Position numbers and translations under genes: made by a program. 36,963 bases of DNA from assembly GCA_018971725.1 (NCBI GenBank), contig JAGXAE010000006.1, positions 1-36,963 of the forward strand. Direction: 5' to 3'. The notes beneath the pieces were generated by a model. It saw only the letters and a list, made by a program, of their open reading frames with translations, searched no databases and was not told where the DNA came from. This document shows, piece after piece, positions 26,416 through 30,940 of the stretch. The stretch is from Pseudomonadota bacterium. Lineage in GTDB: Bacteria; Pseudomonadota; Alphaproteobacteria; Acetobacterales; Acetobacteraceae. How positions within the stretch are numbered: the stretch's first letter is position 1; every line of letters begins with the position of its first letter.

Positions 26416-27729
26416 TTAACCGTGGGAGACAACCTCGCCATGCTGGGTGATGTCGAGCCCCTCGATCTCGTCTTCCTTGGTAACCCGCAGGCCCATGGTG
26501 AGATCGATCAGCTTCAGGATGACATAGCTGACAACAGCGTCGTACACGATGGTGGTGATGATGCCCTCGAGCTGGATGAGAACCTGGCCCGCGTTGCCCT
26601 CGATCAGGCCGGAGTGGCCACCAACAGCCTTGAGCGCGAACACGCCGGTAAGCAGCGCGCCCAGGATGCCGCCGAGGCCGTGCACGCCCCAGACGTCCAG
26701 CGCGTCGTCATAACCGAACATGCCCTTGAAGCCGGTGACGCCCCAGAAGCAGACCACGCCCGCGGCCAGGCCGATGACCAGCGCGCCGCCAACCCCAACG
26801 AAACCGCAAGCCGGGGTGATGGCGACAAGACCGGCAACGGCGCCGGAAACGCCACCCAGCATGCTGGGCTTACCCTTCACCATCCATTCCACGATCACCC
26901 AGGAGAGCACAGCGGCGGAGGTGGCGAGCTGGGTATTGATGGCGGCCATACCAGCCAGACCACCGGCGGTGAGGGCGGAACCAGCATTGAAACCGAACCA
27001 GCCAACCCACAGCAGAGAGGCGCCGATCATGGTGTAAGCCATGTTGGCGGGCGCCATGTTGTCACGGCCATAACCTCCGCGCTTGCCAACCATGATCGCG
27101 GCGATCAGGCCGGGCACAGCGCTGTCGATATGCACGACGGTACCACCGGCGAAATCCAGCACGCCAAGATTGGCCAGGAAGCCGCCAGGACCCCAGACCA
27201 TATGCGCGATCGGGCAGTACACCGCGAGCAGCCAGATACCTACGAACACCATGGAGGAGGAGAACTTCAGGCGGTCAGCCGGGCCGCCCAGGAACAGGGC
27301 AGGAGTGATGATGGCGAAGGTGCACTGGAAGAAGGCAAACACCGTCTCGGGAATGGTGCCGGAAAGGCCGTTCAGCCCCGTTCCCATCAGCATCACGCGG
27401 GAGAAGCCACCAAACAGCGGTGCCAACGGACCGGAACCCTGGGTGAAGGCCAGGCTGTAACCGACGATGCACCACAGAACGGTGACCAGCGCCGTGGTGA
27501 AGAAGCACTGCATCAGCATGGCGAGCATGTTCTTCTTCCGCAGCAGGCCAGCGTAATACAAGGCCAGCCCTGGCACCGTCATCATCAGCACGAGGGCGGA
27601 AGAGGTCAGCATCCAGGCGGTGTCGCCCGAGTTAAGGGTCGGGGCAGCGGTCTGCGCCATGGCGGGCGCGCAGCCGAACGCTGTCAGGCCGAGGCCTACA
27701 GGCACGCCTAAAAGGGATCTTTTCGTCAT
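26416..27729 (-). CDS. amt: Ammonium transporter (AmtB type) with signal peptide
   Basis: A trimeric Amt/Rh channel for NH4+/NH3 uptake. The leader MTKRSLLGVPVGLGLTAFGCAPAMAQ looks cleavable, as in AmtB. The pore histidines are in GGTVVHIDSAVPGL and WGVHGLGGILGALLTGVFA; the AmtB-like GWFGFNAGSALTA and the C-terminal tail (LRVTKEDEIEGLDITQHGEVVSHG), which in AmtB contacts PII, are present. The start is set at the ATG at 27729 (GAGG 5 nt upstream) rather than the tracked 27798, giving 437 aa. No glnK adjoins it, although amtB normally follows glnK. A sigma-54-like promoter lies upstream. Confidence 0.95.
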   Translation of the reverse strand: MTKRSLLGVPVGLGLTAFGCAPAMAQTAAPTLNSGDTAWMLTSSALVLMMTVPGLALYYAGLLRKKNMLAMLMQCFFTTALVTVLWCIVGYSLAFTQGSGPLAPLFGGFSRVMLMGTGLNGLSGTIPETVFAFFQCTFAIITPALFLGGPADRLKFSSSMVFVGIWLLAVYCPIAHMVWGPGGFLANLGVLDFAGGTVVHIDSAVPGLIAAIMVGKRGGYGRDNMAPANMAYTMIGASLLWVGWFGFNAGSALTAGGLAGMAAINTQLATSAAVLSWVIVEWMVKGKPSMLGGVSGAVAGLVAITPACGFVGVGGALVIGLAAGVVCFWGVTGFKGMFGYDDALDVWGVHGLGGILGALLTGVFALKAVGGHSGLIEGNAGQVLIQLEGIITTIVYDAVVSYVILKLIDLTMGLRVTKEDEIEGLDITQHGEVVSHG

Positions 27730-27831
27730 CAAGTCCTCGTTCCTCATTGCGTTGCCTTGACGGCCCGGAGCCCGAACAGGCCGGCAGCGCGTGATCATGA
27801 AAGCTCAGTGCGTTACAAGCGCAGGAAACGA

Positions 27832-27847
27832 AGCAAGGAGCATGCCA
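27832..27847 (-). promoter_or_regulatory. Sigma-54 -24/-12 promoter for the minus-strand amt
   Basis: The minus strand reads TGGCATGCTCCTTGCT. Against TGGCACRNNNNTTGCW this has GG and GC with exactly 10 nt between and one mismatch (T for C in the -24 box). Predicted transcription start is about 27821, giving a ~92-nt leader before the ATG at 27729. Confidence 0.78.
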
Positions 27848-27879
27848 TCCGAAAAAATAAAATCTTTCGGAAATTTTAT
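27848..27879. repeat. Interleaved AT-rich inverted repeats upstream of the amt promoter
   Basis: TCCGAAA (27848-27854) pairs with TTTCGGA (27865-27871), and ATAAAAT (27857-27863) pairs with ATTTTAT (27873-27879). The two overlapping dyads lie just upstream of the -24 box, where IHF or a bending protein would act in a sigma-54 promoter. No protein can be assigned. Confidence 0.5.
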
Positions 27880-28161
27880 CCGCTCAAACGCGGCGTGGTG
27901 GCGTCGCGCTAAAATTCTGGCCACAGCAATGGCACACGTTGCGCAACATTTCTGCACAAAAAATACGCAAATGTTCCAGAAAAGCATGCGAACACCCGGC
28001 GATCCCGGCCCGCGCGCACCGCCATATTGCCAGCGAAACAAGTTCCTTGCCTTGCTTTTTGCTGCAATTTTAAGCGACGGCTTTGCGAAACCCAGCCTTT
28101 TGGGCGGGCGCGGCCGTATGATCTCGCGCTTTGGGCTGAACAATGAACGGCCCGTAAGTCA

Positions 28162-28177
28162 TGGCACAAAACATGCT
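28162..28177 (+). promoter_or_regulatory. Sigma-54 -24/-12 promoter for the plus-strand amt
   Basis: TGGCACAAAACATGCT matches TGGCACRNNNNTTGCW at all but one position (A for the first T of the -12 box), with GG and GC 10 nt apart. Predicted transcription start is about 28188. The tracked ORF start (ATG at 28161) lies inside this element, so the true start must be downstream, at 28263. Confidence 0.85.
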
Positions 28178-28262
28178 TGAATTTTTCACGGATGCCGCGC
28201 GAAACATTGTGGCGTGGCGCCATGTGCAACTGACTTTGGCTGGGACGCATGGAGACGCAACA

Positions 28263-29657
28263 ATGACAATCGTACAAGCTTTGCCGGGCAACTGGCTGGA
28301 TACAGGAGACAACGCCTGGCAGCTTACCGCCGCCACTTTTGTCGGCATAATGAGCATTCCGGGCCTGGCGCTGCTCTATGGCGGTGCAGTGAAGAAAAAA
28401 TGGGCCGTTAACTCGGCCTTCATGGTGTTTTATGCCTTCTCGGCGGTTCTAATTGCCTGGGTGCTGTGGGCCTATAATATGTCCTTCGGCAAACCATGGT
28501 TGAACCTGCCATTCGGCCTTGGGCCTTTCGTCGGGCATCTCGATCCGACCACCTCCGCCTACAATATGGAGAAAGAGGCAATCATCCCCTCCGCCGCTGC
28601 CGCCATGCCAGCCCTTGGCTATGGCCAAGCCACGATGGTGTACTTCCAGTTCGTGTTCGCCGCCATCACGCCGATCATCCTGCTCGGCTCTCTGCTTGGC
28701 CGTGTCAGTTTCAAGGCCTGGATGATTTTCGTACCCCTGTGGACGACGTTCATCTATTCCGTCGGCGCTTATTCATTGTGGGGCGGTGGCTGGCTTTCAG
28801 GCCTGGGCGCCTGGCTTGGCTATAAGGATGCCGCAGGCGTGGTGGATTACTCCGGCGGCTACGTCATCCATCTAGCCTCCGCCGTTTCCGGCTTCACCGC
28901 CGCCGCGATCATCGGCCCGCGTCTGCCACGCGACCGTGAAAGCTTCCAGCCGAATAATCTGCTGATCACCATGGCAGGCGCCGGCCTGCTCTGGCTTGGC
29001 TGGTCCGGCTTCAATGGCGGCGACCCGTTCACCGCCAACGCCGATGCCGGCGTGGGCGTGCTGAACACCCACACCGCCACCGCCGCCGCGCTGCTTACCT
29101 GGACGCTGATGGATGTGCTGGCCTATGGCAAGCCCTCTATCCTGGGTGCGGTGAACGGCATGATCACCGGCCTCGTCGCCATCACCCCTGCCGCTGGCTA
29201 CGTAAACGGCACCGGCGCCATCATCATCGGCATCGCCGCCGCGGCACTGCCCTGGATGACCTGGAACTGGCTCGGCAAAACCAGTCCCATGCGCAAGGTG
29301 GATGACGTGCTGGGCGTGATCCACACGCACGGTGTGGCGGCGATCGTCGGCGGCCTGGGTGTCGGCCTCCTCGCTGACCCCAAGATGATTGAATGGTATG
29401 GCACCAAGAACGATGCCGTCTCCGTAACAGGCTTGTTCTACGGCGACTTCCATCAGTTCATGCTGCAGATTTACGGCGCCGTGTTCATCATCGTCTATAA
29501 CATCGTTGGCACCTTCATTCTGCTGAAGCTCATCGGTCTGCTCGTGCCCCTGCGCATGGATGATGAAACCCTGCTGATCGGTGACGACGCGGTGCATGGC
29601 GAGGAAGCCTACGCAATTTATGCCGACGGCCAGAAAGTACCGGTCCTGGGCGACTAA
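28263..29657 (+). CDS. Second ammonium transporter, divergent Amt clade
   Basis: A 464-aa Amt-family channel clearly different from its neighbour. It has no signal peptide (MTIVQALPGNWLDTGDNAWQLTAATFVG); the pore histidines are in YSGGYVIHLASAVSGF and GVIHTHGVAAIVGGLG, and GLLWLGWSGFNGGDPF replaces the GWFGFNAGS motif. The tail (LRMDDETLLIGDDAVHGEEAYAIYADGQKVPVLGD) is acidic. GGAG lies 8 nt before the ATG. The tracked extension MAQNMLEFF... is hydrophilic and covers the sigma-54 promoter. Having two non-identical Amts from one regulatory spacer suggests different affinities or PII control, which is inference. Confidence 0.94.
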   Translation: MTIVQALPGNWLDTGDNAWQLTAATFVGIMSIPGLALLYGGAVKKKWAVNSAFMVFYAFSAVLIAWVLWAYNMSFGKPWLNLPFGLGPFVGHLDPTTSAYNMEKEAIIPSAAAAMPALGYGQATMVYFQFVFAAITPIILLGSLLGRVSFKAWMIFVPLWTTFIYSVGAYSLWGGGWLSGLGAWLGYKDAAGVVDYSGGYVIHLASAVSGFTAAAIIGPRLPRDRESFQPNNLLITMAGAGLLWLGWSGFNGGDPFTANADAGVGVLNTHTATAAALLTWTLMDVLAYGKPSILGAVNGMITGLVAITPAAGYVNGTGAIIIGIAAAALPWMTWNWLGKTSPMRKVDDVLGVIHTHGVAAIVGGLGVGLLADPKMIEWYGTKNDAVSVTGLFYGDFHQFMLQIYGAVFIIVYNIVGTFILLKLIGLLVPLRMDDETLLIGDDAVHGEEAYAIYADGQKVPVLGD

Positions 29658-29678
29658 CCCCCGCCATTGGCCTACATG

Positions 29679-29711
29679 GACGGCGCCCTTCATGGGCGCC
29701 GTCTTGCGTTT
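29679..29711 (+). terminator. Intrinsic terminator after the plus-strand amt
   Basis: GACGGCGCCC (29679-29688), loop TTCAT, GGGCGCCGTC (29694-29703), then TTGCGTTT. The 10-bp perfect GC-rich stem lies 21 nt after the stop codon. Confidence 0.88.
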
Positions 29712-29758
29712 CAGCCGGTGGTGTTTCCGGCGGCGCGAAACTCTGGCAGGCTAGGCGC

Positions 29759-30940
29759 ATGACGCAAGCATGCGATATCGCGGTGGTGGGTGCTGGCCCG
29801 GTGGGCGGCACTCTGGCTCTGGCCTTGGCGGCACGGGGCCGCAAGGTTCTTTTGGTCGACAAGGCCGATCTGAAACCCATGGAGAACCCGAATTTCGACG
29901 GACGTGCCTATGCCATCGCGCATGGGTGCAAGCCTCTGCTGCAAGAGGCCGGACTGTGGGAACGCCTGCCCTTCGCCCCCTGCCCGATTCTGGATATCGA
30001 CGTGACAGACGGCAAGCCGGGCCGCGCGCCCTCGCCCCTGAAGCTGCATTTCGACCATAAAGCCGTGGGCGACGACCCGTTCGGCTGGATCATTGAGGCA
30101 CGCTCCGTGCGCGTGGCGCTGAATGCGGCTCTGGCGGAGTCAGACGTGATTGTCCGCGCCCCGGCGGAGGCTCTGGTGAGCCGCCATGCGGAGAGTGCCA
30201 TCGTGCAGGTGGGGGATGAACGGTTCAAGACGAAGCTGGTGGTGGCAGCGGAGGGCCGGCAATCTCCGTTGCGCAACCAGGCTGGTATCAGCGTGACCCG
30301 CCTGCCCTACAAGCAGACGGCGGTGATTTTTGCCGTGGCGCATGAGGTGCCGCACAACAACGTGGCGCTGGAACATTTCCTGCCAGGCGGACCATTCGCG
30401 GTGCTGCCAATGACCGGCACGGCGGAACACCCCAACCTCTCCGCCGTCGTATTCACCGAGAGCGATACGAATGCCAAGCTGCTCTATGGCATGGATGATG
30501 CCGGGCTGCTGCGGGCGGTGCAGGCGCGGCTGGGCAACCGGCTGGGTCGGCTGGAACTGGCCGGGCGGCGCTGGCTCTACCCGCTCTATGCCATGTACGC
30601 GGCGCGCTATTACGATACGCGCCTGGCCTTGGCCGGAGATGCCGCGCATGGCGTGCACCCCATCGCGGGACAGGGCTTGAATTTGGGGCTGAGGGATGCC
30701 GCCGCGCTGCTGGATCTGGCGGGTGCCGCGGATGACCCAGGCGCGGAGTCTGCGCTGCGCGCCTATCAGGCGAAGCAACGGCCTATCAACATGGCGATGC
30801 TGCTGGGCATGGACGCGTTGGACCGGCTCTTCTCCAACAATTTCCCACCGGTTCGGTTGGTGCGGGACCTCGGCCTTGCGGCGGTGGAGCGCATGCCGCG
30901 CCTGAAGCAGCGCTTTATGCTGGCGGCCATGGGGCGGTAG
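29759..30940 (+). CDS. UbiH/UbiF/COQ6-family FAD-dependent hydroxylase
   Basis: A flavoprotein monooxygenase of the ubiquinone-biosynthesis type, which hydroxylates the benzoquinone ring precursor. The N-terminal dinucleotide-binding motif is VVGAGPVGGTLALALAARG; the second FAD motif is LALAGDAAHGVHPIAGQGLNLGLRDAAALLDL, with the GD and the UbiH signature HPIAGQGLNLGLRD. At 393 aa it is full length. Which ring position it uses (UbiH, UbiF, UbiI or UbiL-like) cannot be told. It stands alone after the amt terminator and is convergent with the next gene. Confidence 0.93.
   Translation: MTQACDIAVVGAGPVGGTLALALAARGRKVLLVDKADLKPMENPNFDGRAYAIAHGCKPLLQEAGLWERLPFAPCPILDIDVTDGKPGRAPSPLKLHFDHKAVGDDPFGWIIEARSVRVALNAALAESDVIVRAPAEALVSRHAESAIVQVGDERFKTKLVVAAEGRQSPLRNQAGISVTRLPYKQTAVIFAVAHEVPHNNVALEHFLPGGPFAVLPMTGTAEHPNLSAVVFTESDTNAKLLYGMDDAGLLRAVQARLGNRLGRLELAGRRWLYPLYAMYAARYYDTRLALAGDAAHGVHPIAGQGLNLGLRDAAALLDLAGAADDPGAESALRAYQAKQRPINMAMLLGMDALDRLFSNNFPPVRLVRDLGLAAVERMPRLKQRFMLAAMGR

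What the first reader, a model, noticed from the sequence alone, without database searches (positions are those of the whole stretch)
27730..28262. Two different ammonium transporters fired from one spacer by back-to-back sigma-54 promoters
On the minus strand TGGCATGCTCCTTGCT (27832-27847) and on the plus strand TGGCACAAAACATGCT (28162-28177) each match the sigma-54 consensus TGGCACRNNNNTTGCW with one mismatch and exact 10-nt GG/GC spacing, each correctly oriented upstream of an amt gene. The amt genes are not duplicates: one has a signal peptide and AmtB-like tail, the other lacks a leader and has a different tail. Neither has a glnK neighbour. The ~315 bp between the promoters would then be a shared enhancer region serving two transporters.
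Basis: partly seen in the sequence, partly recalled or inferred. Interest (0 to 1): 0.62.

Follow-up and report, generated by a model that had tools for sequence, protein, structure and literature searches.

The report
Twin nitrogen-starvation promoters for ammonium transporters
In an Acidocella bacterium two different ammonium-transporter genes point away from one DNA spacer, and comparison with related species shows that each has a genuine nitrogen-starvation (sigma-54) promoter with an NtrC-type enhancer site beside it, while one of the messages also starts with a conserved folded RNA that matches no known RNA family.

Summary
The window comes from an Acidocella MAG. In the window alone they are no more than chance (2 found, 0.91 expected), but the genus settles it: 22/22 amt A genes and 19/21 amt B genes carry the element in the same place (null about 0.2). 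A 17-bp NtrC-type dyad precedes A. A matrix trained on those A sites finds the dyad 99-102 bp above all 24 sigma-54 elements of PII (glnB) promoters; a matrix trained on glnB ranks three spacer sites 1st, 4th and 5th in 37 kb: 27953-27969 (A's), 28060-28076 (B's, at glnB's spacing) and 27940-27956. So the spacer holds one enhancer module per promoter, within mutual reach; real sharing is not shown. The genome has rpoN and an NtrC with GAFTGA. The back-to-back layout is derived: three close relatives have it, others have A->B in tandem or one gene. New here: A's leader (27738-27810) folds into a covarying hairpin, possibly a pseudoknot, found only in Acidocella and not in Rfam. No expression data exist; start sites, NtrC binding and leader function are inferred.

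The parts
26416..27729 (-). amt A, AmtB-like ammonium transporter with a signal-peptide-like N terminus; true start most likely 27729 (the longest ORF starts at 27798)
   Evidence: the upstream extension of the ORF is broken by 1-nt indels in relatives G007 and G024
28263..29657 (+). amt B, second Amt-family transporter, no signal peptide, different C-terminal tail
   Evidence: about 35% identical to A
27832..27847 (-). sigma-54 -24/-12 element of amt A; predicted start near 27821
28162..28177 (+). sigma-54 -24/-12 element of amt B; predicted start near 28188
27953..27969 (.). NtrC-type dyad TGCACAAAAAATACGCA, main enhancer site of A (starts 122 bp above A's -24)
   Evidence: best of 36947 positions in the window with a glnB-trained matrix;
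27940..27956 (.). second dyad TGCGCAACATTTCTGCA overlapping the first by 4 bp
   Evidence: rank 5 of 36947
28060..28076 (.). dyad TGCTGCAATTTTAAGCG, probable enhancer site of B, 102 bp above B's -24, the same spacing as at glnB
   Evidence: rank 4 of 36947; kept in G004 and G025
27738..27810 (-). structured leader RNA of amt A: P1 (27783-27789 with 27750-27756), P2 (27777-27782 with 27762-27767), loop GGCTC (27768-27772), possible pseudoknot partner GAGCT (27802-27806), Shine-Dalgarno AGGAA (27740-27744)

Best explanation
The spacer between the two amt genes is a double NtrC/sigma-54 control region. Under nitrogen limitation phosphorylated NtrC binds the dyads at 27953-27969 (with 27940-27956) and at 28060-28076, loops the DNA and opens sigma-54 polymerase waiting at 27832-27847 (towards A) and 28162-28177 (towards B), so both transporters are induced together with glnBA. 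Each promoter has its own enhancer site at the usual distance, and because all sites lie within about 350 bp each may also help the other. Transcripts of A start with a roughly 92-nt leader containing a conserved hairpin just before the ribosome-binding site, which probably adds a second, post-transcriptional control. Shown: the sequence elements, their conservation and spacing, presence of rpoN and ntrC, covariation of the hairpin. Inferred: binding, transcription starts, nitrogen response, sharing, and any function of the leader.
For: sigma-54 elements conserved in 22/22 A and 19/21 B genes against a null near 0.2, surviving tandem, divergent and single-gene layouts. NtrC-type dyad in front of A throughout the genus, 68-146 bp above the -24. 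Cross-test: a matrix from A sites of species outside the window clade finds dyads scoring 14.7-25.2, 99-102 bp above the sigma-54 element of all 24 PII genes that have one, and only low scores (up to 9.5) at the 6 PII paralogues without one. The reverse matrix, from glnB only, ranks the three spacer sites 1st, 4th and 5th of 36947. rpoN present; ntrC over its curated cut-off, next to ntrB, with GAFTGA in its sequence.
Against: No transcript, start-site or binding data. Site 28060 is moderate (12.0) and its conservation rests on three close genomes. Five of six tandem species show no good dyad within 220 bp of B, so B's promoter may work there from A's distant dyad or under another activator. 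The shuffle null for the spacer has a long tail (best score of 16 or more in 2 of 1000). The sequences compared are related, so counts are not independent events. Other sigma-54 activator-type proteins exist in the genome.
Confidence: 0.87

Rival explanations
1. Both promoters depend on sigma-54, but the activator is not NtrC, or differs between the two genes (for example the NtrX-like or other enhancer-binding proteins encoded in the same genome).
For: At least three further AAA+ activator-type proteins in the genome; B in most tandem loci lacks a nearby dyad.
Against: The same dyad stands at glnB promoters at nearly the same spacing in 24 genomes, the classical NtrC target.
Confidence: 0.1
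2. One truly shared enhancer: only the double dyad at 27940-27969 is active and serves both promoters; 28060-28076 is a decayed or chance site.
For: 27953 is by far the best site; it lies about 193 bp from B's -24, within looping range.
Against: 28060-28076 ranks 4th of 36947, is kept in G004 and G025, and has glnB's 102-bp spacing.
Confidence: 0.3
3. The -24/-12 matches are chance or relics and both genes run from ordinary sigma-70 promoters.
For: Two such matches are not unusual for 37 kb of this composition.
Against: Conservation in position and core across the genus.
Confidence: 0.03

Closest known systems
NtrC/sigma-54 control of glnK-amtB (E. coli and other proteobacteria; from general knowledge)
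   Same: amt gene behind a -24/-12 promoter with upstream 17-bp dyads of TGC...GCA type
   Different: no glnK beside the amt genes; two unlike amt genes face away from each other; dyad arms here are TGCCTA...TAGGCA rather than TGCACC...GGTGCA
Divergent sigma-54 operons orp1/orp2 of Desulfovibrio vulgaris (PMC3897727)
   Same: two divergently transcribed operons, both sigma-54 dependent with one cognate enhancer-binding protein
   Different: different activator and genes; IHF shown to be required there, not examined here
Caulobacter and Rhodobacter NtrC (PMC10274813)
   Same: alphaproteobacterial NtrC; in Caulobacter it controls glnBA
   Different: those NtrC proteins lack GAFTGA and act on sigma-70 promoters; Acidocella NtrC keeps GAFTGA
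glnA and Downstream-peptide RNAs of cyanobacteria (PMC2864571)
   Same: structured leaders in front of nitrogen genes, ammonium transporters included
   Different: no match of A's leader to any Rfam family; different architecture and host group

Membership tests
sigma-54 (RpoN) promoter | GG and GC 10 nt apart in TGGCACRNNNNTTGCW context | tested here: met
sigma-54 (RpoN) promoter | element kept in relatives at the same place | tested here: met
sigma-54 (RpoN) promoter | rpoN encoded in the genome | tested here: met
sigma-54 (RpoN) promoter | RpoN-dependent transcription start about 12 nt downstream | not testable with these tools
   needs RNA from wild type and rpoN mutant
NtrC regulon | upstream dyad of the type found at glnBA, about 100 bp above -24 | tested here: met
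NtrC regulon | sigma-54-competent NtrC (GAFTGA) encoded | tested here: met
NtrC regulon | NtrC binding and nitrogen response | not testable with these tools
   needs ChIP-seq or expression data
Amt/AmtB transporters | match to PF00909 / TIGR00836 over the curated cut-off | tested here: met
   A 432 and B 351 bits against 343 for TIGR00836
AmtB equivalog (NF007947) | score over 657 bits | tested here: not met
   A 464, B 224 bits
Single shared enhancer for both promoters | one enhancer serving two promoters | tested here: inconclusive
   two separate candidate modules found; function needs mutants
Known Rfam leader or riboswitch family (A's leader) | covariance-model match | tested here: not met

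The most novel reading that the evidence does not exclude
The amt A leader is a new class of cis-acting RNA, an H-type pseudoknot or two-part hairpin next to the ribosome-binding site, that lets Acidocella adjust translation or stability of a transporter message already induced by NtrC, by sensing a small molecule or binding a protein.
Probability: 0.35. Interest if true: 0.66.

Novelty: new variant of a known kind. Interest (0 to 1): 0.5.

Why it matters
It gives a sequence-level definition of the NtrC/sigma-54 regulon (promoter, dyad, spacing) for an acidophile genus for which no paper with NtrC was found in the library searched, and it links two unlike transporters to one starvation signal. 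The leader RNA is a directly testable candidate for a second layer of control of ammonium uptake.

Tried and rejected
A classical TGCACC-N4-GGTGCA NtrC search gave no significant sites in most genomes; the genus uses a TGCCTA/TAGGCA form. B's leader has a very conserved GGCTGGGA...GGAGA stretch, but the long-range GCCG:YGGC pairing proposed by RNAalifold gets no covariation support. A GAGC:GCTC hairpin upstream of P1 fits only some species. Single-sequence folding energies of A's leader are mostly not below shuffles, the window's included, so the support is covariation, not stability. Sequestration of the Shine-Dalgarno by the 5' end is seen in some species only. Leader-RNA hits outside Acidocella (E 0.02-0.04) have no amt gene beside them and were dismissed as chance. 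A coding extension of A to 27798 was rejected because of indels in relatives.

Full report
WHAT IS THERE. The window belongs to a 2.4-Mb, 86% complete MAG; its nearest relatives in named collections are Acidocella MAGs and isolates. In the window alone they prove little: two sites with at most one mismatch against 0.91 expected, and 25 of 100 shuffles reach two.

CONSERVATION OF THE PROMOTERS. A search of 60 relatives found amt DNA related to this region in all but one of the 36 other genus members searched. A sigma-54 element stands before every one of 22 A genes examined and before 19 of 21 B genes, about 83-138 bp before B's start codon; one more B gene (G029) has a weaker TGGTATAAAATCAGCA. 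Shuffled regions give about 0.2 genes with such a site. Outside the window's own clade the DNA above the elements is mostly unalignable, so they stand out as islands.

GENE ORDER. ubiH and, where the contig reaches it, transketolase flank the amt genes. Tandem species have ubiH <- -> A -> B -> tkt; others have only one amt gene next to ubiH; only the window, G004 and G025 have B on the ubiH side and turned round, which makes the promoters back to back. The layout therefore looks derived, and the promoters did not arise as a pair: each gene carries its own.

ENHANCER SITES. In front of A nearly every species has a 17-bp dyad close to TGCCTAAAATTTAGGCA, 68-146 bp above the -24. That matrix was trained on the sites it scored, so I tested it elsewhere. 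A matrix from A sites outside the window clade was run on up to 450 bp before the PII genes of the genus. All 24 PII genes with a sigma-54 element have a dyad scoring 14.7-25.2 that starts 99-102 bp above the -24; the six without a sigma-54 element have none above 9.5. In the window's own genome that PII gene is followed by glnA, the classical NtrC target (general knowledge). In the other direction, a matrix trained on glnB sites alone ranks 27953-27969 first, 28060-28076 fourth and 27940-27956 fifth of 36947 positions in the window. The 28060 site starts 102 bp above B's -24, the spacing seen at glnB and at several other B loci. The spacer thus holds one module per promoter.

MACHINERY. rpoN and ntrB-ntrC are present. 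NtrC contains GAFTGA, unlike Caulobacter and Rhodobacter NtrC, which lack it and act on sigma-70 promoters (PMC10274813). One PII gene was found in this incomplete genome, not beside any amt gene. A third amt gene is on contig C194.

THE TRANSPORTERS. A is AmtB-like (412 bits to a solved AmtB); B is a more distant Amt (198 bits); they are about 35% identical. Both keep, by eye, the Asp and twin-His motifs of the family (A: DFAGGTVVH, WGVHG; B: DYSGGYVIH, HTHG).

A STRUCTURED LEADER. Between A's sigma-54 element and its start codon lies a conserved RNA, 27738-27810 (-). It has P1 (7 bp) stacked on P2 (6 bp), a 9-nt loop ending in invariant GGCTC, an A-containing 3' bulge, and AGGAA (Shine-Dalgarno) a few nt after P1. 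Over 21 distinct sequences 97.6% of cells pair, 8 pairs have changes on both sides, 36 cells change on both sides against 13 in shuffles (0 of 500 reach it), and sliding the partners destroys it. That alignment was fitted to the structure, which favours it, but RNAalifold on an alignment made without any structure found the same two helices, with 7 pairs changed on both sides. GAGCY upstream can pair with the loop GGCTC in every sequence, but these columns hardly vary, so the pseudoknot is only possible. The model finds one copy per genome in 24 of 38 Acidocella genomes; in all the loci read it lies before A. It finds nothing credible in 385 genomes drawn from the class or 300 from the family outside Acidocella, and Rfam has no match. 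It has no run of T after the hairpin, so attenuation is unlikely; its position beside the ribosome-binding site suggests control of translation or message stability, which is inference.

VERDICT. The circuit is an ordinary NtrC/sigma-54 one in an unusual, derived layout; the leader RNA is the less expected part. Sharing of the enhancers, start sites and nitrogen response remain to be shown at the bench.

Noticed in passing
window 27738-27810 (-): Covarying structured leader RNA of amt A, one copy per genome, Acidocella only, not in Rfam.
   Followed up: yes
window 28178-28262 (+): Leader of amt B holds a strongly conserved GGCTGGGA...GGAGA stretch (CACACGGCTGGGA in many relatives); no convincing covarying structure was found.
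   Followed up: partly
window 29657-29759: In the divergent clade B lies about 100 bp before ubiH in the same direction, so the sigma-54 transcript might run into ubiH; in other species ubiH points away from the amt genes.
   Followed up: no
L001:3936-3952: A strong NtrC-type dyad (CGCCCAAAATTTGGGCC, score 16.3) stands before a gene for a periplasmic amino-acid/amide-type binding protein next to the third amt gene; no sigma-54 element was found in L001.
   Followed up: no
L040, L043, L044, L045: Some species carry a second B copy downstream of the first, also behind a sigma-54 element.
   Followed up: partly
window 14482 and 18496: Two further dyad-like sites rank 3rd and 2nd in the window with the glnB matrix; their neighbourhood was not examined.
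   Followed up: no
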